Source: Chrysophaeum taylorii (lineage: Eukaryota > Sar > Pelagophyceae > Pelagomonadales > Pelagomonadaceae). From it: DNA of 64,000 bases. The notes under the pieces were generated by a model, which had not been told where the DNA came from, searched no databases, and saw nothing but the letters and a program-made list of their open reading frames with translations. The stretch lies in NCBI GenBank assembly GCA_029834535.1, contig JAQMWT010000309.1, positions 1-64,000 of the forward strand. The letters are read 5' to 3'. Positions 1 to 11,152 of this stretch are shown one piece after another; the first letter of the stretch is position 1; the number at the start of each line of letters is the position of its first letter. A program made the position numbers and the translations under genes.

Positions 1-331
1 TGTGGCGTAAGGAGAATTTAGGGGCTACCTGGCGTGCCTTCGAATCCTGGCTCGCCGATCGCGTCCGTGCCCTTGGTGGGATCACTGGACGAGGATGGCC
101 GTTCTCCCGCCACGCGACCACAAACAACTTCCGTGCCTGGTCCTCAACTTGAGGATCGGCTGTTGCTTTATGATCAAGGATAATCGAAAAACAGAAATCA
201 GGGTGACACATGTCACGGAAAAGGAAGATGATGTCATAGAAAACTGACACATCATCGGAACGGAGTAGGTGCCCCTGATAAGGGGGGCCCTAGAAGGGGG
301 TAAGCCTTAGGAGGCGGGAGTTGCCGCCACA
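1..331 (-). repeat. 3' LTR of the Ty3/gypsy element
   Basis: Direct-repeat partner of 9949-10283. It runs from TGTGGCGTAAGG to GCCGCCACA. On the minus strand a short purine-rich stretch (AGGGGAGTCC) lies just before it at about 332-341 and is a weak polypurine-tract candidate. The window opens exactly at the TG, so whether the repeat truly starts here was judged only by alignment with its partner. Confidence 0.88.
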
Positions 332-379
332 GGACTCCCCTGGTAAGAATTCGAGCTGCCCCAGCGAGGCTAGCGCGAG

Positions 380-1000
380 GAGCGCGGCTTCGCCTTACGA
401 GCATCTCGTGAATCTTCTGGTAAACGCGGGTGATGATCGGTTCAGGAACTCGACCACTGCGTAAAGTAAACTTGGGGACCAACACATCAATCTCGTGCGG
501 AGCGAAATCCGTGACACAAGGAGTTGTGTTGGAGGAAATTCGGGACTTGTCGGTGAAACTTCGACCTTCAACGTCCTTGAATTCGGGCTTGAGCTTGCGG
601 TGCGAAAGGTGAGAGGTCGGCTTGAAATAAGCGACATCGTTCGGACCCAAATCGGAATAGAAATGTAGAGCAACACGATCATTTTGGTAATCGTAAGGCT
701 CGTAAACTTCGGCAACATAAATCTTCTTGCGCCAATCAGAGCGCTTCCGGTCAGGAATTCGGAAAACAACAAACTTACCGTGCTGATAATCATCACGGAA
801 GGTTTCTTCGGGTTTGCGGATGGTTTGATCAACGATCGGAGGTACCATCACGGGCGTGATCTGACTGACATGAACACGTCGTTCTTCGGGCGGAGAGTCG
901 AGAGACTCAATCCTAGGTGACCGGGGAGAGGCGTTCCTTGATAATAAACGGCCCTCGCCATTCCGGTCGAAGTTTGTTCTGAAGGAAAGGGATGTAGAGC
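380..1000 (-). other. C-terminal extension after the integrase of the Ty3/gypsy element
   Basis: An open stretch after the integrase barrel contains HGKFVVFRIPDRKRSDWRKK and IYVAEVYEPYDYQNDRVALHFYSD, aromatic-rich beta-strand patterns reminiscent of small SH3-like or chromo/Tudor-type barrels. Gypsy elements often have a chromodomain here. I cannot assign this one and give only position and composition. Confidence 0.4.
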
Positions 1001-2080
1001 AAAACGTGCGATCCTTCCTTGTATTCAACATCAACATGATCAGCATTGTAAGCCAATCGCTGTTTCTTCAAAGCTTTATCACGAGCCTCGCGGACGATCT
1101 TTGTATAATATTTCAATCGTTCGCGAGTCTCGGCGACTGCATCAGAGCGAGTCTTCGGCAATAATCGTGTATCAAAATCCATGAGCGTGTAGTCAGTCGG
1201 CAGCATCGGCTGACGGTTCAGGCGCAGCATAAAGGGAGAAATCTGCGTGCCTGGAATAAACTTGCGGTTGTAGCAAAACGCAATATAATGAGCAAAGTCA
1301 GGCCAATCCGTGATGTTCCGGCCTTGAAGGCAAGCACGGAGGAAGGCCTTGATAAATCGGTTGACACGCTCAGCCGGGTTCGACTGGGCATGATAAGGAA
1401 TCGTAGTTTGGTATCGTGTGTTAAAGAGATGGCAAAACTCGCGCATCAACTTGTTCACGAACTCTTTACCGTTGTCGGTACGAATCATCTGGGGCAAGTA
1501 GCCCTTGAGGAGAATGTTAATGACAAAAGACTCGAGGACAGACTCAGCAGTCTTATCGTTCAAAACATCCAGAATCAAGAAATGCGAGAACGGATCAAAA
1601 ATACTAGAAGATACGTCTCGGGACCAGCGCTGGGCAAGGGTCCAAATAAATCCATGCAAAGAACAGCACCATCACCATCGTAGACGGGCTGCTGCAAGAG
1701 TCCAGCTCGTTTCGGCTCAGGCGTACGAGCTTTCTGGCAAACTAAGCATTCAGCAATGAAGACTCCAACTTCGTTCGACATGTGAGGCCACCAAAATCGT
1801 TCTTGGATAGCCTGGACGGTACTGTGACGTCCCATATGACCACCGTTAACCGGAGTGTGTATAGAGTCGAATAATGCGCTTGCGCAACGTAGCAGGTGCA
1901 ACAATCATCGGGTGCGAATCAGCAGAAATGCGGTAAAGAACATCTTTAACGACTTCGAATCGTTCGTTCGCTCGGGAACGTCGCGGCGTCTGACCTTGGG
2001 CCATTCGGTAGCGAATATCCTCGCAAGTAGCATCAGATTCTTGCTCACGTGCGATCTCAGCGAGCGTCATATTATCGGGT
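913..2080 (-). CDS. Integrase region of the Ty3/gypsy element
   Basis: An HHCC zinc-binding segment is visible (GGHMGRHSTVQAIQERFWWP...CLVCQK). The catalytic core follows, with IRTDNGKEFVN and PYHAQSNPAERVNRFIK, the usual D...N and P.h.q.n...E signatures. A GPFIIKERLSPVT-like stretch follows, as in the C-terminal beta-barrel of gypsy integrases. It lies downstream of RNase H, as in Ty3/gypsy. Confidence 0.8.
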
Positions 2081-2399
2081 ATCTTATCGATATAATCTTT
2101 GTAAGCGGCTGCGTCCTTGAAGATCTGTCATCACGCGCACGGTTCTTCCGACGTTGTCTCGTAGCGTGAGACGTAGCCAATTTCATCGGATCCTTTTCAG
2201 GGTCTTCGTCTCCGTCTTCCGGCAGTTCGGTCGTAATAAACGACATTATGAAGTGGCAGCCAGAGACGGGAACTCCTCGGTCATCAACAGGTCGGGAAGC
2301 TCTTGGAACACTAGATACGCGTGGTTCAAAGGTTCTCCAAACTCGTCAGTCTCGATGACATGATCTATCGGGTTGCGGGAGAGACAGTCAGGGATACTC

Positions 2400-3600
2400 A
2401 TTCCCGGTGACTTTCCCGCTTGTAACCAAGTTCAGGGTCAAAATTGGCGAGGCGCATCGCCCAACGAGCAAGCTGCCCAGACGAGTTCGCCTTACGTAAA
2501 AACGTCAAATTTCGGTGATCGGTCTCCAAAACAGTACGGTGCCCTTCGATGTAGGCTCGAAAGTGCTCTAGAGAAAGTATAACTGCCAGCAGCTCTAGCC
2601 GACGGGGCTCATAATTCCGCATCTCCTTCGGCACAGCTCGGCTCCAGTATTCAATTACTCGTTCTTCTCGAGTCACTCTTCCGGCATCGTCCTTGACTTC
2701 GACAATCTGGAAGAGATATGCTCCAAGTCCATCCTTGGAAGCATCGGATCGGATCTGAAAAGGCAGATCATAATCGGCGTGGTAGAATCAACTAAAGCTT
2801 CAATAATCGTATCCCAAGCTTTCTGACACTCGGGCGTCCACTCGAACTTTACACCTTCGAGGCATAATCGTCTCAACGGTTCCACAATCTTCGAGTAGCC
2901 CTTCACATATCGCCGGCAGTAATTACTCATGCCGATGAAAGAGCGTATCTGGGTCTTCGGGGAAGTATTCGGTAAAGTACCTGGAATCGGCATCTTCTGC
3001 AGTGCTTCCAGCGTCTTCGGATTCGGCTTCAAGCCTTCTGGGGTAGAAATGTGTCCCAGAAATTCTATATCATCCTTGAGAAGGTGGAACTTCGCGGTTC
3101 GACCGCTGTACCCTCTCTGTGCCAAATGACACATCACTTCGATCAAAACTTGTAAATGTCGATGAAGATCGTCGGATCCCATCATAATATCGTCAACAAA
3201 CGCAACCAAGTCTTGATACATCCATTTCGAAAGGTCGCTCGCCATTTGCTTGCAGAAAAGAGCTCCGGCCGTCTTCACACCTAGAGGTAATCGCAAGAAA
3301 CTATGAGCGCCAAGTGGGCTAACCATCATGACAGCGTCCTGCGCTGCCGGATCCAGACGAAGGTCGTGGTATCCCCATCTAATATCAATGCATGTCCGCC
3401 ATCGTCTCATCGCGAGAAAGGCTAAAGCATCATCTTGTCGAATGTTTGGCCAACTGTCATTGACCAATTGATCGTTGAGCTGACGTAAGTCAACTGCAGC
3501 ACGGAACGCGTTTGACGTTCCAATCTCAGCTCCTTTCTTCGGAAGCATCAACACAGGAAAGCCCCAAGGTGAGTTGGCCGGACGAATGACTCCATCCCGA
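2400..3600 (-). CDS. Reverse transcriptase and RNase H region of the Ty3/gypsy element
   Basis: The RT part shows SPWGFPVLMLPKK, AVDLRQLND, FLRLPLGVKTAGALF and FVDDIMMGS (the YxDD box in its VDD form), in family order, followed by the thumb/connection motif FIGMSNYCRRYVKGYSKI. RNase H follows near 2400-2680, with VIEYWSRAVPKEMRNYEPRRLELLA and TVLETDHRNLTFL, typical of gypsy RNase H. The region is a fossil in several frames. Family placement in Ty3/gypsy is secure from these motifs and from the RT-before-integrase order. Confidence 0.85.
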
Positions 3601-4379
3601 CCACTCACCACTCGCTGATCTGCTTGCGGAGACAATCGAGCTTCGCAGGCGTCAATCGGTAGGGCGTCATCTTAATCGGTCGCGGATTCGCGTCTTTGAA
3701 TCGTAGAGACACAGGAGGCGAGTCCACAGGTCTCATAATCGGGTCGAAAAAGGCCCAAGAATATTGCACACAGTGACGGAGCATCAGTTTCGCCTCGTCA
3801 TCTAAGTGCGGATTGTCAGGAATTCCCAGCTCCTGCACACCTTGTCAACTTCTTCCTTTGTAGGAATTTTAACTTTCATTGCTTCGTTGTCCTTGACATG
3901 CTCAGGAGTCTGCGGCAGTGGTGCACCCTCGGCATCGCGCGGCGCATCTTTCCATGGCACATCGAACTTTTTCTCGTATTTTAGTTTCACTTCCGGGTGG
4001 CTTTTGTTGATCCTCTCGCCTTTGACACGAACACTCGGCTCGCTCTTAATCTTCGGTTCCCGATCTCGCTCAGGATCTGGCGGAACGTCTAAATTTGGTT
4101 GTCGGGGGGCCAGCAGAAGAAGCATGAGACGTCCCCGGCTCATCTGTTGCAGGCGGAATCAACGGTACCTCTGGAGGTTTCCATTTGGTGCGATCTTGAA
4201 GATCATCAGTCGACACCCATCTTATGACACGTGTGCGCGTGTTTAACAGCGGAACTTGTACGTGACGAAGGGTGGTTTCATCAATTTGTAAATAATAATC
4301 AAACGGTCGGTCTGCAGGACTCAACGCTGACGGCAAAGCTTCGCCGCTCAGGTGAAATTCCTTGGTCACAGAGTTGTGC

Positions 4380-5210
4380 AGATCGAGCATTAATAAGGCT
4401 ATCGTGTCAGGTGGCACGACGGACGCCAAGTGTTTCAACGAGGTCGTCCTGGAGAAGCCGGCCCAATCAAAATCAGGGGGCATCGTCAGCAACTCCGAAG
4501 TCATTTCCAGATTCAGAGATCTGTAATCGGAACGGTGCGGTCCTACGCGAAGCGGGACACGCGTAACAGTATAAGCTGCGTCTGTCGCGGCTCGTGATGA
4601 TCCTAAATTGTTCATCTGAAGTAAATGTCGTTCGTCGGCGTAGCCAAGTGCGGCGGCGAACTTGTGCTGCATATTCTTGCAAGTCTTGGGAACTGCGCGC
4701 AAATGGAGCGGATGGCTGGAAACCAACAATCGCACGCGACAGCTCATCAAACTAGGAGTTATGTCGTAAAAATTGACGACGTAAACGTAAGGGTGCAAAC
4801 GTGCAACGTAAGAAATAATCGAAGCCTCCTGCTCTATCAACCACATGAAGAAACCAGCCATCTTGCATAATTTCATCGTCCAGTGGGTAGCGGTGACTCC
4901 CTTCCCAACATCTCGGAAGTCAAGTTGCACAGAGCGGAGTGTACGCAGGGTGGCGACGCGACACATCGACGACGACCATTCCGCGTAGGGTAAATAAGAT
5001 TCGATCAACCGTAAGGTTGTAACATAGCGACCACACAATGTGTGCTGCACCACAGGAATATTCGGAAAGTTCTTGTGGTGGATCTGGTTGGCGGTGTCCG
5101 ACGCATCGAGTGCTAGCACGACTCGAAACGACGTCCCACACGTTTCGTTGGCTCGTTGGAGACCTAAAGTACTGCCTCCGGCTCCACTGAACAGCATCAC
5201 CACCTTGCGA
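4380..5210 (-). CDS. C5-cytosine DNA methyltransferase-like domain inside the Ty3/gypsy element
   Basis: C5-cytosine methyltransferases transfer a methyl group from S-adenosylmethionine to cytosine in DNA. Here a segment opens with VVMLFSGAGGSTLGLQRAN, the FSGxGG motif I that binds the cofactor. About 20 residues on comes ALDASDTANQIHHKNFPN, matching motif II and the H..NFP stretch after it. Near the end, SLNLEMTSELLTMPPDF and ASVVPPDTI resemble the family's late motifs (E...l.gFPd and GNAVPP). The ordered motifs over about 275 residues make the family call firm by eye. It lies between protease and RT on the same strand, so it is a part of the element rather than a neighbouring host gene. Cytosine methyltransferases captured by eukaryotic retrotransposons have been reported, and this seems another case. 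Confidence 0.75.
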
Positions 5211-5899
5211 TAAGTGATTGGAAGCCATTGAACCTTTTCATATCGGCGGCGGATCTCCGCTTCGGTGATCTCGCGGCATTTCTTTTCATCTTCTTCTGAC
5301 CTTCGAGCGAAATCGTCGCTGCCTCCAGGTCGTTTGAGGGTGGACTTGTCCGCCATAGCGGTCGTAGCGTCCTTCTGCACCGTGCTCAGCAGCATCGGCA
5401 GGGAGATTCGTCGCATCGCGTCAAGTGACTAGCGACAGAAACGGTGAAAGAAAGGTTCCCCTTGTCGTATCCTTCTTCACATTCTTTCGTAAGTTCGTTG
5501 ATCGTAGAGACGTTCAACTCATCTTCGTACCTAACGATATCACCAATCGCAAGGGCTTCGCCTTGAGTGACGATCGTCGGCACTTCTTCCGTGGCAGTAA
5601 CCGCCACCCGAGCAGCGGACCGGTCGCGCTCTTCGCAAGAAGAACATTCCTTCGACAACTCCCAACTGCTCGTTCTCAGCAAACGTAGCGACGAAAACCT
5701 GTCCTTTTCCATAGGCTTCGACAAAATAACCGGTAGATTGTACGTTCGACCGGGCTCGATTTGAAGCGTGCGCGCAGCATAAGCGATTACTTCTCGCGCG
5801 TCTTCTCCCGGAGCTGGGGAGAATTTGGTCGTAGCATGTCCCCGCGTAGCCATGGCTACCTTACGTTCCGGCGGCGGGCTTCGGAGATCTTTAATCGTG

Positions 5900-6510
5900 C
5901 TCAAACGAGCATAAACTCGAGTCTTGACCAGGTCGAGACTCTGCCGAAAGGCATCGTGTCGATGATTGTAAATCGGTACGGTTATCGGATTTCGATCGTA
6001 AATAGACCGAAAGGTCACGATTGGTGCATCGACTCGTTCATCCTTAACTTTAATCTTCTTGCGCCCGTAGACGACTTGGGTTCGACAAAAACAGATCCGA
6101 TCATGGGGAAAATCCACGATGGCGCCTAAAATTCGTATATCGCGCCCTCCCAACAGGAACAGGCAATTCGTATCGGCTACAATAGCGACAATGGGGGCAG
6201 CGAAGTCGTCGGCGAAAGCGACCCGAAGGGCGATCCAACGATGGATCGTCGTCGTATTCAATCCTGATCCGTACAGCTTGCGCTTAATCGGAAGTTCGCC
6301 TTCATCGAAAATCAACTGATCTTTGGTCAACTTTTTGACCATTTCTCGGCAAATATAAGAAACATCGCCATTCCATCGACACCGATGGTCGTCGAGAATT
6401 TCGGACCGTCACGATTCCTGTAGATGTGACAGGCCATAAACGTTAGAGAACCCGTATCTAAACAACTGAGGGTAATCAAATCATCTTCGATCGTCTTGCC
6501 GTCTCGCGGC
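5900..6510 (-). other. Retropepsin-like protease region of the Ty3/gypsy element
   Basis: Two protease hallmarks lie in this stretch: an LDTGS-type active-site motif and, downstream, a LLGGRDIRILGAIVDFP-type segment matching the usual 'LLG-D-hydrophobic-DFP' end of gypsy proteases. Position between gag and the methyltransferase-like domain agrees with a protease. Confidence 0.6.
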
Positions 6511-9482
6511 GTCAACGAAGTGTGAGCACATCGGGCTCTGATTCGCTCATCTCCGGGGTTGGGCATCGATACCGCGGCTTGAGCTGTCGTATTATCTGTT
6601 GTTGGCGTCCTCGCCATAACGCTCGCGGCAGCCTCTTTATCTGGCGGCTTCCGCTCTTCCTCCAAGACAATCTCAGAGGGAATCAGTGTTGGTAGGGGAT
6701 CCTGGTCTTCGTGGTTCACGGAAGCAAAGGACCCCTCCCATAAATCATTCATTTCGTCTTTCCAGAATGCATCTGTAAATCCATTCGTCGCCTGCTGATC
6801 CTCATCAGCATCGGCGATCGGTTCCGTGTCAGCTGCGGCTTTGAGTCTGCAGCTGCGCGGTTGTTCTGGTGGCTTCTTTAGCAAGAAATTCCGAGCTTTC
6901 GTCCACCAATCCTGCAGGTTCCACGTCTGCTCGTCTTCGTCACACTTGAGAACGCTGCTAATCTTCTTCATAAATCTATCCTTTTCTTCCGGCGGCGTAT
7001 CCGTGTCTCGATCCGTAGTAATCGAAACCGTTTCGGGGGGGTCCGCAGGAAAAGATGGCGTCGTCCCCGACGTCAACTCTGTCGTAAAATCGTCGTCTGC
7101 AATACTCGCGCTTGTCATCGTCTCGTCAGTCGAATGCACGCACGAGCTAGCACTGCAGAAATTCATGTCTGGCTCACAGCCAGTTCGGTCGCCAGCGGTC
7201 GTCTCTGGAGGGTCCAAAGATAAGCCGATGGCATCGAGGGCTTCCTCATCAAAAATAAACGGTGGGTCGTCCATGGACGACTCGTCAAATAACGTTATCG
7301 CGGACACTGGTTCACAAAGTGTAGCTTCTTCATCTTCCGAATCTGAATCGCCTTCCCAGTATCGTGGAGCTTCAAGTTCCTCGCTCGAATCTTCGAGCTC
7401 ATCGCTCGACATCTGCTCATAAATCTGTGCCAAAGACCGACGATTGGTCAGCACGTCGTTGGGTGGCTCGTCCATCAGTGGGCGAGCAAGATCTTCGAAT
7501 GCGGCCGCGGCAAGGGCGTCGGCTGCGTCGTCGGTGCGGGTGTCCATGTTCGGGTACACCGTCACTCCTAATGGTAACTGTTGACCGCAAGGGGTCGTAA
7601 ATGTGAGCGTTGCGCTCAAAAAACTCGAATTATATTGGTGTCGGCCTCCGTCGTATTCGTCGTCGCGCGATCGGCGTCCTCTGTGCCGGCGCGAACTTCG
7701 ACTGGGGCTCTTGTTATCTTTGTCTCTCTCTGGCGTCAGTTCGGCAGGTCCTAGTACCTCTGGATCGTCCCTGTAGGCGACTGGTGCTCCCAAGTCTATC
7801 CGAACCGGCTCAATCGTCTCGTCTATCGAAACATCGACGCATTCGTTGTCTTTTTGCCAAAACTCCGACCAAACGTAAATTAAATCTCGGTTGGCCAATA
7901 AATCCGTGCCTCGGGGTCGGAATTGTACTTCTTTCCGCTCTGGCGGTTTCTTCCTCAGGAAACATTGAGCTCGTATCCTTATCGTCGGTACGCTCATCTT
8001 CCTATTATCCATGCTGATCGTCCCATCAAAATTCGGTTCCGGGCGGCAGCTATACTCATCCCTCATAGTATGTTCGGGATCTTTCTTTATCACGTAGCCA
8101 TCATCATATGCAGGCTGAAAATCTTTGAACTCTTCGTTCGTGAGTAATACGCCAGGGCTTTTACTGAGCTCCAAAGGCAGTTCATGCGTTATAAGATTCT
8201 TCATCTCTTCCGCTTTCGTATTCATTTTCTCGGCCGTTTCACTCGGCCTCTCATCCACTCCATCGCTTCGAATATCGGCAATCGCCTCGTCACTAAAAAT
8301 GTCGGCACACGAATTGTCTGCCATCGTCAAAGGGAATAAAACATCTGCAAAAACGTCTGCAGTCGGTTCGTACGAACCGACTGCAAAAACGTCTGCAGTC
8401 GGTTCGTCGGGGGGGGCTGCAAAAGAAGAAGGCGTCGTCCCCGACGTCATATCTGTCAAAAACTGGCCACCAAAGGGCACGTGACGTTCGATGGGTGTGT
8501 ACTCAGGTGCGCGCTTATCATTCGAGGTAATCCTCTGCGACGCATCGTCGATCGATCGTGGAGGCGACGTGCCATCCACTTGAATGTTCGGAGGTAAACT
8601 CATAGCATCGAGCGTAGCAGCGGCGGGTCCCTTACTTTGGGCGTCATCGGCTGCACGGGGCTCGTAAATCGGATTCACACATAACTCCGGCGCGTCGTCA
8701 AGACCGAGGGTTGTGTCAGCTGACGACAAATCATATCGTGCCACCAACGGTGACACCGGGTTAGAAGCGATTGTCGGCTTCGACCCGTAGTTTAACGACG
8801 TTTCGGTCAAATTCTTCGATTCTGTGGGGATTTTGGTTTGGGTGAGCTCCTTCGACTTGGATTGCTCTTGATCGTAGTTTAACGACGTTTCGGTCATCTC
8901 GGACGACTCGTCGTCGTCGTCGCGCGGCTTCCTAACTTTCGCTCGCGTTCGCGTGGGCGGCAGTACCTCCGAAGGTCGGAATTCTCCCTCGAGACTGTTC
9001 GCTCGCCTCGGGCGATTCGGCATACGCAATTCATCTCTTTCACGTGTCAACGCGCTTGCTTGATCTTGGAGGGCGTCTGCTCGAGCATTGGCCATACGCA
9101 GTTGCTCTCGCACTATTTTTATCTCCTTCCGGTGTAGCCGTTCTTTTCGTTCGTTCTCTTCCCCTATTTGTTTTAAAAGTCGTTCTTGCGCGCGTTCGTT
9201 CTCTTCGCGTAATGCCCGCAAGTGAGCCTCGTAGAACTCATTCATTTTCATTGCATCCGGGGGTTCAGCACGCGTTGACGGAGCTGTCGATCGTCCTCCC
9301 GCCGGTCTCTCCGTGGGCTTGCCGTCGTTGTAGTTTAGCTCTTCATCCTCGTCAACTTCTGTATCGTGCTCTTCTTCATCATCATCATTATCATCATCGT
9401 CATGCCGCTCGTTCGTCTCATCCTGACGGCTTGGCGGTTCTTCATATCGTAGCTGCTCGGCGGCAGCATCATCGTCTTCCAT
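6327..9482 (-). CDS. Gag-like ORF1 of the Ty3/gypsy element
   Basis: A 1051-residue open frame, the first after the primer-binding site. It opens with a very acidic segment (runs of D and E, residues about 25-55), followed by a charged helical segment (about 90-160, with repeated EENER/KERL/REQLRMANARADAL patterns) that reads as a coiled coil. The middle is long, acidic and low in complexity, with a short internal duplication (EPTADVFA twice). I see no CCHC zinc knuckle. Near its C-terminus is an LDTGS motif like the active site of retropepsins, so the protease region starts inside or beside this frame. Gag identity rests on position and composition; no capsid fold could be recognised by eye. 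Confidence 0.6.
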   Translation of the reverse strand: MEDDDAAAEQLRYEEPPSRQDETNERHDDDDNDDDEEEHDTEVDEDEELNYNDGKPTERPAGGRSTAPSTRAEPPDAMKMNEFYEAHLRALREENERAQERLLKQIGEENERKERLHRKEIKIVREQLRMANARADALQDQASALTRERDELRMPNRPRRANSLEGEFRPSEVLPPTRTRAKVRKPRDDDDESSEMTETSLNYDQEQSKSKELTQTKIPTESKNLTETSLNYGSKPTIASNPVSPLVARYDLSSADTTLGLDDAPELCVNPIYEPRAADDAQSKGPAAATLDAMSLPPNIQVDGTSPPRSIDDASQRITSNDKRAPEYTPIERHVPFGGQFLTDMTSGTTPSSFAAPPDEPTADVFAVGSYEPTADVFADVLFPLTMADNSCADIFSDEAIADIRSDGVDERPSETAEKMNTKAEEMKNLITHELPLELSKSPGVLLTNEEFKDFQPAYDDGYVIKKDPEHTMRDEYSCRPEPNFDGTISMDNRKMSVPTIRIRAQCFLRKKPPERKEVQFRPRGTDLLANRDLIYVWSEFWQKDNECVDVSIDETIEPVRIDLGAPVAYRDDPEVLGPAELTPERDKDNKSPSRSSRRHRGRRSRDDEYDGGRHQYNSSFLSATLTFTTPCGQQLPLGVTVYPNMDTRTDDAADALAAAAFEDLARPLMDEPPNDVLTNRRSLAQIYEQMSSDELEDSSEELEAPRYWEGDSDSEDEEATLCEPVSAITLFDESSMDDPPFIFDEEALDAIGLSLDPPETTAGDRTGCEPDMNFCSASSCVHSTDETMTSASIADDDFTTELTSGTTPSFPADPPETVSITTDRDTDTPPEEKDRFMKKISSVLKCDEDEQTWNLQDWWTKARNFLLKKPPEQPRSCRLKAAADTEPIADADEDQQATNGFTDAFWKDEMNDLWEGSFASVNHEDQDPLPTLIPSEIVLEEERKPPDKEAAASVMARTPTTDNTTAQAAVSMPNPGDERIRARCAHTSLTPRDGKTIEDDLITLSCLDTGSLTFMACHIYRNRDGPKFSTTIGVDGMAMFLIFAEKWSKS
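8359..8384. repeat. Perfect 26-bp palindrome inside the gag-like frame
   Basis: GCAGTCGGTTCGT and its reverse complement ACGAACCGACTGC abut exactly. The left half is repeated again just downstream (to about 8407), as part of a short direct duplication in the frame. Confidence 0.7.
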
Positions 9483-9928
9483 ATCGGCTCTGGCTCGTTC
9501 TAGTCGGCCGAGGTCAGAGCGGGTCCAAAATGGTTGAGTCGTCGTCGTTCTCGTGCTCCTTCGGCTCCGGAACTTCTAATCGTCCACGACACGCGTAATA
9601 TCGTCGTTGCGTGCGTCTTCCACCGACAAATCTATCCGTACGGTGGGCGGCAGAACTCGTCTCTGCCCGGCAAACAATGCCTTATCCGTGAGTTGCGATC
9701 TCACTCCGCTCGCCTGCGGCAGCGGTACCCGGGTTGCGCGTCGGTTAGCACCAAATCGCGCGTCGTCACTTCCGACGACAAACGTATCCGGCCGGGGAAC
9801 TTTTCCCACGGCAATGGTCCTTCTGGAATTCCTTGTCGGCGCGCTTGATCAGGGCGCGCACGGCTTGTCCGGACCGTGTAGAGAATGCAAGATGCACTAG
9901 TTCGCTGCGACCGATATAGTCGCTCGAA

Positions 9929-9946
9929 TCTCGTATTCCTCCACCA
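9929..9946 (-). other. Candidate primer-binding site of the Ty3/gypsy element
   Basis: On the minus strand two bases (GG) follow the 5' LTR, then TGGTGGAGGAATACGAG. A primer-binding site is expected to begin TGG, complementary to a tRNA CCA end, close to the LTR, and this one does. The complementary strand resembles a tRNA 3' end, with a TCGAATC loop-like stretch followed by an acceptor strand and CCA. I could not assign the tRNA. Confidence 0.5.
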
Positions 9947-9948
9947 CC

Positions 9949-10283
9949 TGTGGCGTAAGGGGAGTTTTAGGGGCTACCTGGCGTGCCTTCGAATCCTGGC
10001 TCGCCGATCGCGTCCGTGCCCTTGGTGGGATCACTGGACGAGGATGGCCGTTCTCCCGCCACGCGACCACAAACAACTTCCGTGCCTGGTCCCTCAACTT
10101 GAGGATCGGCTGTTTCTTTATGATCAAGGATAATCGAAAAACAGAAATCAGGGTGACACATGTCACGGAAAAGGAAGATGATGTCATAGAAAACTCTGAC
10201 ATCATCGGAACGGAGTAGGGTGCCCCTGATAAGGGGGGCCCTAGAAGAGGGGTAAGCCTTAGGGGGCGGGAGTTGCCGCCACA
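9949..10283 (-). repeat. 5' LTR of the Ty3/gypsy element
   Basis: Matches 1-331 over its whole length with few differences and has TG...CA ends. As the coding strand is minus, this right-hand copy is the 5' LTR and should hold the promoter. No clear TATA box was picked out. Confidence 0.88.
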
Positions 10284-10485: not shown

Positions 10486-11152
10486 CAGGTGAACTTACTG
10501 GGTTTAGAGATTGGGACTAGGTGAACTTAGTGGAGAGATTTGACCCTCTCTGGGTACATGGTAGAGACTGCGTGCAGTCTTAGGCGTGTACAGACCATTC
10601 CGCTTGCCACATGCTACTACACAAGGTAGGGATTTAAGCCCTAACTCCTCAAGGACATTAGGTCCCATAGAAGCGTTTACACTGACAACGAGGAACGAAG
10701 CCTCTGTTAATTAAACAGACAACCCCGTACCTGACGGTACGCACCTGGAGGCCTACTCCATGTTGGAAAAGAGCTTCAGACTGGGTTCTTCATAGTCATG
10801 AAATATAATTGCGGAAGGGTAAGGAAGGAAGGAGAGAGGGAAAGCCGTATTACGGAGAGAAAACCCTCGTGTAGAGATAGGTGTGAAAATGCTCCAGTGT
10901 CGCACACATAATAGTGTAGCTCTCTGGACTTAGTGACCAGGCGAACTTACTGAGACCAAGTGAGCTTACTGGGGCTTTAGAGTAAACTCAAAGCTTAGCG
11001 GCGTGTGCGGATCAAAGCAGCTTAGATTGGCGGGGGTGAGAGCGACGAGCTCAAAGGAGAGTGGGTGAGTGGATGTGAGCACGAGTGGCTTTACGCCGAA
11101 CTTACTGGGGTTAGAGATTGGGACTAGGTGAACTTACTGGCGAACTTACTTG
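10470..11152 (+). repeat. Satellite block (GTGAACTTACTGG-type) next to the helicase fragment
   Basis: Spaced copies of the motif GTGAACTTACTGG occur at about 10470-10535 and 10925-11150, plus a block at about 10980-11060 shared in reverse with the 58-62 kb array (the stretch around CAAAGCAGCTTAGATTGGCGG). Between them, about 10545-10925 is unique within the window and has no gene I can recognise. As a whole, 10284-11152 is one inverted unit of the distant array. Confidence 0.7.

What the first reader, a model, noticed from the sequence alone, without database searches (positions are those of the whole stretch)
4380..5210. A retrotransposon that carries a cytosine DNA methyltransferase-like domain between protease and RT
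Seen: FSGAGG motif I, the ALD...NFP stretch and late MPPDF and VVPPDT motifs in order, on the same strand as gag and RT and inside a pair of LTRs. Known: cytosine methyltransferases captured by eukaryotic retrotransposons have been reported, but are rare. Inferred: the element may methylate its own or related copies, escaping or steering silencing. The place within pol, next to the protease, is unusual and suggests release by proteolysis.
Basis: partly seen in the sequence, partly recalled or inferred. Interest (0 to 1): 0.85.

Follow-up and report, generated by a model that had tools for sequence, protein, structure and literature searches.

The report
Gypsy retrotransposon with built-in cytosine methyltransferase
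A family of Ty3/gypsy retrotransposons in an unidentified eukaryote carries a cytosine-methyltransferase-like domain between its protease and reverse transcriptase, and a copia family in the same genome carries a different one in a similar place, which hints that methylation helps these elements.

Summary
Window 1-10283 (minus strand) is a degraded Ty3/gypsy element (LTRs 96.7% identical). The named segment matches C5 methyltransferases at motif I (Pfam E 2.4e-5); a profile of sister copies extends this to motif IV (E 2.6e-7, far above shuffles, though the reference set leaned its way). The window copy has lost the catalytic Pro-Cys by a frame shift; the other 49 of 50 copies examined keep it. 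The genome has at least 94 matches to the domain. Protease-RT spacing is 1696-1719 bp in 37 of 45 measurable copies; the one at 678 bp is an internal deletion. dN/dS between two old lineages is 0.06-0.07: the domain is selected. Unexpectedly, a Ty1/copia family in the same genome carries a dissimilar methyltransferase (PCQ, ENV), also after a protease-like stretch. Methyltransferase-bearing retrotransposons are known (SymbioDIRS, SymbioLINE, KnitGypsy-Dnmt3); this is a new variant. Methylation of the element's own cDNA is the likeliest role but untested, and CpG patterns give it no support. Proteolytic release cannot be judged. The host was not identified.

The parts
9949..10283 (-). 5' LTR of the element (element reads on the minus strand)
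   Evidence: 96.7% identical to 1-331 over 335 columns, 7 mismatches, 4 gaps; begins TGTGG and ends CCACA on the minus strand
1..331 (-). 3' LTR; the contig starts at window position 1, so the target-site duplication cannot be checked
   Evidence: one search gives the window as contig C309 from base 1
9929..9946 (-). candidate primer-binding site, TGG... two bases inside the 5' LTR
   Evidence: sequence read; assignment by eye, matching tRNA not looked up
332..343 (-). candidate purine-rich tract next to the 3' LTR
   Evidence: sequence, by eye
6327..9482 (-). long gag-like ORF (1051 aa) whose last residues hold the retropepsin-like LDTGS (about 6447-6458)
   Evidence: ORF; no significant Pfam family; gag and protease named by place and by eye
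5386..6342 (-). rest of the protease-like stretch and the linker before the methyltransferase; frame broken relative to a sister copy
   Evidence: same region in other copies found; continuous in the sister copy
4070..5416 (-). methyltransferase-like domain ORF (448 aa); core about 4381-5212
   Evidence: PF00145 E 2.4e-5; 17 of 18 stop-free sister copies also match PF00145 at E 0.01 or better
5171..5191 (-). motif I FSGAGGS (SAM binding)
   Evidence: each position kept in 46 to 50 of 50 copies
5099..5113 (-). motif II region ALDAS
   Evidence: aspartate invariant in 50 of 50 copies
4916..4960 (-). motif IV stretch read in a shifted frame in this copy; Pro-Cys lost here, kept in the other 49 of 50 copies
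4826..4840 (-). LIEQE, candidate motif VI (by eye; no profile support)
   Evidence: first glutamate invariant in 50 of 50; negative for profile support
4730..4738 (-). RVR, candidate motif VIII (by eye; no profile support)
   Evidence: first Arg 50 of 50, second 49 of 50
2673..3635 (-). reverse transcriptase, Ty3/gypsy type
   Evidence: PF00078 E 1.6e-12; in a sister copy the best PDB match is a Ty3-type RT (4ol8, E 6.1e-35; Ty3 Gag-Pol 7q5b, E 8e-34)
2398..2676 (-). RNase H
   Evidence: PF17917 E 2e-20
1575..1904 (-). integrase zinc-binding domain
   Evidence: PF17921 E 2.5e-15
913..1659 (-). integrase core
   Evidence: PF00665 E 5.2e-8
252..1046 (-). C-terminal ORF after the integrase, no Pfam match

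Best explanation
This is one degraded copy of a Ty3/gypsy family whose Pol polyprotein has permanently taken in a divergent C5-cytosine-methyltransferase domain between protease and RT. Shown: the domain is there, its SAM-binding motif I and the Pro-Cys of motif IV are conserved across the copies examined, it sits at a near-constant place, and it is kept by purifying selection over a long divergence. Inferred: it is translated within Pol, packaged with RT in the particle, and methylates cytosines on the element's own nucleic acid, most likely the new cDNA before or at integration, so that the copy enters the genome already marked. A dissimilar methyltransferase at a like place in a copia family of the same genome suggests that such marking pays in this host.
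For: 94 matches listed genome-wide, a lower bound; 71 of 94 have no internal stop and 32 of 94 are stop-free and lie in frames of 1000 aa or more (counted). Of 45 places with both protease-linker and RT hits, 37 have a spacing of 1696-1719 bp; in 16 of the 45 the domain was not in the hit list, and two of these 16 with normal spacing were fetched and have it, frameshifted. Pro-Cys in 49 of 50 copies. Between two lineages dN/dS is 0.059-0.071 in the domain core, 0.129-0.148 in protease-linker and 0.022-0.048 in RT; the half after motif IV has dN 0.12-0.13 with synonymous sites saturated. Profile match to bacterial C5 methyltransferases through motif IV. Copia family: RVT_2 E 3.6e-39; PCQ and ENV found in one reading frame in 27 of 28 loci, dN/dS 0.08-0.18 in the methyltransferase stretch. 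Precedent: SymbioDIRS DNMTs methylate CG in yeast (PMC5890265, section 10).
Against: Activity is untested. Nothing after motif IV is recognisable as a methyltransferase, so target recognition and motifs VI-X are guesses. The bacterial reference set was reached through the profile's own best hit. The best PDB matches are at noise level: unrelated GGA1 chains score nearly as well as DNMT2. No CpG depletion and no excess of CpG transitions between copies, so no footprint of stable CG methylation on these copies. In PMC5890265 (section 10) the KnitGypsy and SymbioLINE domains showed no activity in yeast (called inconclusive there). The window copy itself lacks motif IV. dS is near saturation, only two lineages were compared, copies are not independent, and among close copies the ratio is higher (0.18-0.39). 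One copy has lost the domain by an in-frame deletion. Expression and packaging are unknown.
Confidence: 0.5

Rival explanations
1. The domain is an active methyltransferase but works on RNA: the element's genomic RNA or its tRNA primer, like DNMT2.
For: Three of the four methyltransferases listed by the PDB profile searches are DNMT2 types (E 0.07 to 1.3). The profile aligns with the host's own DNMT2 (L001) over 132 columns, probability 44%, E 2.4e-4. De Mendoza et al. raise RNA methylation for SymbioLINE (PMC5890265, section 11).
Against: Those PDB scores are at noise level (GGA1 chains score alike). A four-sequence DNMT2 profile matches motif I-II only, E 5.5e-6, no better than the bacterial profile, E 2.6e-7 (the bacterial set was chosen in its favour). 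The DNMT2 signature CFT is not present (by eye).
Confidence: 0.18
2. The domain acts in trans on host chromatin or on competing elements, silencing rivals or damping its own spread.
For: Two methyltransferase-bearing families with many matches in one genome; host PF00145 proteins present (L001, L002).
Against: Selection at the element level favours acts in cis (general reasoning); CpG is not depleted in the rest of the window either.
Confidence: 0.12
3. The domain is a non-catalytic SAM- or nucleic-acid-binding piece of Pol; methyl transfer has been lost.
For: Half of the domain is unrecognisable; motifs VI and VIII are only guessed.
Against: Pro-Cys is kept in 49 of 50 copies and across two lineages with near-saturated dS, which a mere binding role would not require.
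Confidence: 0.15
4. The domain is a passive hitchhiker without function.
For: One copy with an exact in-frame deletion of 343 codons of the domain exists.
Against: dN/dS 0.06-0.07 over an old divergence and a near-constant position in the family.
Confidence: 0.05

Closest known systems
KnitGypsy-Dnmt3 of Klebsormidium nitens (PMC5890265, section 9)
   Same: LTR gypsy element with a C5-methyltransferase in the Pol ORF, several copies, under purifying selection (Ka/Ks below 0.2 there).
   Different: There the domain belongs to Dnmt3 and the repeats are arranged as in DIRS (Fig. 4 legend); here there is an ordinary LTR pair, and the domain has no database relative at E 1e-3 (best E 1.3). No Dnmt3 reference was compared, so Dnmt3 descent is not excluded.
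SymbioDIRS-Dnmt3 and SymbioLINE-Dnmt of Symbiodinium (PMC5890265, sections 6 and 10)
   Same: High-copy retrotransposons encoding C5-methyltransferases; SymbioDIRS shown to methylate CG in yeast.
   Different: DIRS and LINE classes with other integration machinery; here Ty3/gypsy and Ty1/copia.
DNMT3 in 'LTR Copia and DIRS' elements (passage in PMC12344493)
   Same: A copia association is named in print.
   Different: That passage speaks of DNMT3 in streptophytes and dinoflagellates; the copia methyltransferase here has PCQ/ENV and matches a bacterial profile; DNMT3 was not tested.
DIRS elements with Dam-like adenine methyltransferases (named in PMC5890265 section 6 and in passages of PMC6338049)
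   Same: A methyltransferase captured by a retroelement.
   Different: N6-adenine enzymes, structurally unrelated to cytosine DNMTs according to PMC5890265.

Membership tests
Ty3/gypsy LTR retrotransposon | Two LTRs in direct repeat | tested here: met
   1-331 and 9949-10283, 96.7%
Ty3/gypsy LTR retrotransposon | RT and RNase H of gypsy type, integrase downstream of RNase H | tested here: met
   RT, integrase; RNase H; Ty3 types are the best PDB matches of a sister copy
Ty3/gypsy LTR retrotransposon | Aspartic protease upstream of RT | tested here: inconclusive
   LDTGS by eye; no Pfam protease match
Ty3/gypsy LTR retrotransposon | Target-site duplication | not testable with these tools
   the contig begins at the 3' LTR end
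C5 cytosine methyltransferase (PF00145) | Motif I, SAM binding | tested here: met
C5 cytosine methyltransferase (PF00145) | Motif IV catalytic Pro-Cys | tested here: met
   49 of 50 copies; NOT met in the window copy itself
C5 cytosine methyltransferase (PF00145) | Motif VI (ENV) and motif VIII (QxRxR) | tested here: inconclusive
   LIEQE and SCRVR by eye, conserved but without profile support
C5 cytosine methyltransferase (PF00145) | Target-recognition domain and motifs IX-X | tested here: not met
   no similarity beyond shuffles after motif IV; absence of detection only
C5 cytosine methyltransferase (PF00145) | Fold | tested here: inconclusive
   single-sequence model of the window ORF, mean pLDDT 32, unusable
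C5 cytosine methyltransferase (PF00145) | Methyl transfer to cytosine | not testable with these tools
   needs an assay
KnitGypsy-Dnmt3 | Methyltransferase of the Dnmt3 clade | not tested
   no Dnmt3 reference sequences in hand
KnitGypsy-Dnmt3 | DIRS-like repeat arrangement (Fig. 4 legend, PMC5890265) | tested here: not met
   simple LTR pair found; one copy looked at
DNMT2 | CFT...GTGS signature | tested here: not met
   present in host L001 and in PDB DNMT2s; the element reads AYTVTRVPLRVGPHRS where I would place it by eye
DNMT-bearing retrotransposon (broad kind) | Domain in the element's coding frame, many copies, under purifying selection | tested here: met

The most novel reading that the evidence does not exclude
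In this host, two unrelated LTR superfamilies (gypsy and copia) independently captured different cytosine methyltransferases just downstream of the protease. That would point to a host barrier that every incoming retro-cDNA must pass by being methylated, that is, an immune check on unmethylated foreign DNA, making self-methylation a general entry pass and not a curiosity of one element.
Probability: 0.25. Interest if true: 0.88.

Novelty: new variant of a known kind. Interest (0 to 1): 0.62.

Why it matters
Why retrotransposons would encode the very kind of enzyme that hosts use to silence them is an open question. Here one genome holds two such families from different superfamilies, with dissimilar enzymes, many copies and like positions, both under purifying selection by the comparisons made here. 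That makes the question testable in one host: are the copies methylated, in which context, and does the mark come from the particle? The gypsy domain is also a methyltransferase-like protein whose second half matched nothing in the libraries and profiles I tried, yet is strongly conserved.

Tried and rejected
Protein database (three searches): the window ORF and a sister copy gave no hit at E 1e-3; an alignment of 14 cores gave one weak PF00145 protein, E 1.3. Viral contigs: no relatives of either methyltransferase. Phage records: none. Structure: single-sequence model useless, mean pLDDT 32, so no fold search was made. DNMT2 origin considered and not adopted. Common origin of the gypsy and copia domains: no profile match between them, but those profiles are shallow, so this is weak evidence for separate capture. 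A joint alignment did not place the gypsy part after motif IV credibly. Host identity: five requests for 18S rRNA did not complete; a search for '697 contigs' did not help. MT-free gypsy relatives: an RVT_1 search listed many other RTs, but no sequence could be cut out, so the pre-capture state was not found. Literature: searches found de Mendoza 2018 and works citing or neighbouring it, and in the listings and passages I saw nothing on this pair of families; the library is open-access only.

Full report
WHAT IS THERE. The first 10.3 kb of the window is one LTR retrotransposon on the minus strand. Its LTRs are 1-331 and 9949-10283, 96.7% identical. On the minus strand the order is: a gag-like 1051-aa ORF without significant Pfam match, a retropepsin-like LDTGS (by eye), a linker, the methyltransferase ORF 4070-5416, RT (PF00078, E 1.6e-12), RNase H (PF17917, E 2e-20), integrase zinc-binding domain (PF17921, E 2.5e-15) and integrase core (PF00665, E 5.2e-8). 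In a sister copy the best solved relatives of the RT are Ty3 types (4ol8, E 6.1e-35; 7q5b, E 8e-34). The window copy is split into several frames.

IS IT A METHYLTRANSFERASE. The ORF matches PF00145 only around motif I (24.3 bits, E 2.4e-5), as do 17 of 18 stop-free sister copies chosen out of 50 held. A profile of 14 sister cores against 15 bacterial C5 methyltransferases aligned motif I through motif IV with 93% probability, E 2.6e-7 for one comparison. The score, 57.3, compares with at most 26.7 in 100 column shuffles and 15.9 reversed. Caveat: those 15 references come from genomes reached through P0004, the weak best hit of the same profile, and about half are P0004-like, so the figure is flattered. 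The part after motif IV gave nothing: 4 of 60 shuffles reached the real score against a four-sequence DNMT2 profile and 56 of 60 against the bacterial profile. In the PDB the best profile matches are DNMT2 chains at E 0.07-0.1, with unrelated GGA1 chains close behind: noise level.

THE WINDOW COPY IS A BROKEN MEMBER. Among 50 copies compared (the 30 best-scoring of the 94 matches, window included, plus 20 low-ranked ones; 44 not fetched), Pro-Cys of motif IV is present in 49; the exception is the window copy, which reads about 15 codons there in a shifted frame. Whether that is mutation or assembly error cannot be told; the two further copies I looked at for another reason also have frameshifts.

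IT IS A FIXED PART OF THE FAMILY. A search of the window's own genome (70.8 Mb, 697 contigs) lists 94 matches to the domain, a lower bound; 71 have no internal stop and 32 are stop-free and in frames of at least 1000 aa (counted). Protease-linker and RT searches gave 124 and 107 matches. Leaving out four short protease fragments, 45 of 120 protease rows have an RT row on the same strand within 9 kb downstream; 37 of the 45 have a spacing of 1696-1719 bp, and the others 678, 1538, 1586, 1853, 1918, 1919, 2072 and 4955 bp. In 16 of the 45 the domain was not in the hit list. I could fetch the interval of three of these 16: two with normal spacing hold the domain with frameshifts, and the 678-bp case has an exact in-frame internal deletion of 1029 bp that leaves the start of the domain, so it is a derivative and not the state before capture. 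The other 13 were not seen. No MT-free relative with clean edges was found, but more distant gypsy elements could not be examined.

SELECTION. Between the window's lineage (sister copy L040) and a second lineage about 74% identical in the domain (L061, L066, L067), dN/dS is 0.059-0.071 in the domain core, 0.129-0.148 in protease-linker, 0.022-0.048 in RT and RNase H, and 0.262-0.286 in the tail after the core. dS is 1.26-1.86 in the first three regions, so the divergence is old and the ratios are approximate. The half after motif IV has dN 0.12-0.13 with saturated synonymous sites: it is constrained although unrecognised. Among five close copies the core's ratio is 0.18-0.39, and two of these five give RT ratios of 0.60-0.63, probably from misread frames.

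A SECOND, COPIA-TYPE FAMILY. The PF00145 search of the genome gave 57 matches; 28 of the 30 loci fetched belong to another family, with AGGLHQEGF, LPCQH and ENVPP. In one copy read in adjacent stretches (C96) the order is: LIDGGAS (protease-like, by eye), methyltransferase, integrase (rve, E 0.003, below Pfam's cut-off), RVT_2 (E 3.6e-39): a Ty1/copia element. By a string search through whole reading frames, stops passed over, PCQ and ENV occur in one frame in 27 of 28 loci (L003-L030); these loci were the best PF00145 hits, so this favours good copies. dN/dS in the methyltransferase stretch is 0.08-0.18 for five loci against one reference copy. A search with that stretch gave 156 matches, pieces of one copy counted apart, list cut. 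The copia domain aligns with the bacterial methyltransferases over 181 columns, through motif VIII (E 4.5e-10). The gypsy and copia domains do not match each other; with shallow profiles this is suggestive, not proof, of two captures. Both sit downstream of a protease-like stretch.

HOST BACKGROUND. The genome has its own DNMT2 (L001: best PDB match 1g55, E 3.9e-39, with the CFT signature) and another large PF00145 protein (L002). CpG observed/expected is 1.30 in the element, 0.81 in the 5' LTR region and 1.31 in window 12000-64000. C/T differences in 375 pairs (aligned 2 kb or more at 93% or more) of 30 copies are, per site, 0.029 before A, 0.034 before C, 0.042 before G and 0.056 before T. 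CpG is thus not the hot spot, and I see no footprint of CG methylation. The pairs are not independent, and there is no MT-free control.

HOW IT MOST LIKELY WORKS. The domain lies in the Pol frame (one copy shows protease-like stretch, methyltransferase and RT in one continuous frame), so translation as part of Pol and co-packaging with RT are the natural inference. Methylation of the element's cDNA is the role proposed for SymbioDIRS in PMC5890265 (sections 10 and 11, read) and is my first choice; RNA as substrate, trans action and a non-catalytic role are rivals. In that paper the KnitGypsy domain showed no activity in yeast, which its authors call inconclusive.

NOVELTY. Retrotransposons with C5 methyltransferases are known: PMC5890265 (sections 4, 6, 9, 10 and 11 and further passages read). 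PMC12344493 (passages) mentions DNMT3 in copia and DIRS elements; PMC6338049 (passages) reviews accessory methylases; PMC9998398, PMC12477816 and PMC3145265 (passages) gave stramenopile and TE background only. My searches (listings) showed no report of this family or of gypsy and copia captures in one genome. Hence: new variant of a known kind.

Noticed in passing
G000:C96:59500-70000 (loci L082, L017, L081) and loci L003-L030: A Ty1/copia family carrying a different C5-methyltransferase (PCQ and ENV) after a protease-like stretch; 156 matches to the domain, pieces counted apart.
   Followed up: yes
L085 (G000:C119:4580-5300): A gypsy copy with an exact in-frame 343-codon internal deletion removing most of the methyltransferase but keeping its start.
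   Followed up: yes
window 8358-8385: A perfect 28-bp palindrome inside the gag-like ORF.
   Followed up: no
window 10491-10536 and 11098-11143: A 46-bp repeat, 93% identical, just outside the element, in DNA with several copies of the phrase GTGAACTTACTGG or near it.
   Followed up: no
window 252-1046: C-terminal ORF after the integrase without Pfam match; may be a targeting module like the chromo or Tudor domains described for Ectocarpus gypsy elements (PMC12477816, passage).
   Followed up: no
G000 contigs C25 and C521; C10 and C297: Hits at nearly the same coordinates with identical scores, suggesting duplicated haplotype contigs, so copy counts may be somewhat inflated.
   Followed up: no
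G000:C696: The four strongest RVT_1 hits of the genome lie together on this contig; perhaps an organelle genome with group II introns.
   Followed up: no
L001 and L002: Host PF00145 proteins: a DNMT2 with the CFT signature, and a protein in a 2086-aa open frame with TSC in place of PPC at motif IV.
   Followed up: partly
30 gypsy copies, L031-L060: C/T differences between copies are commonest before T (CpT), not at CpG.
   Followed up: no
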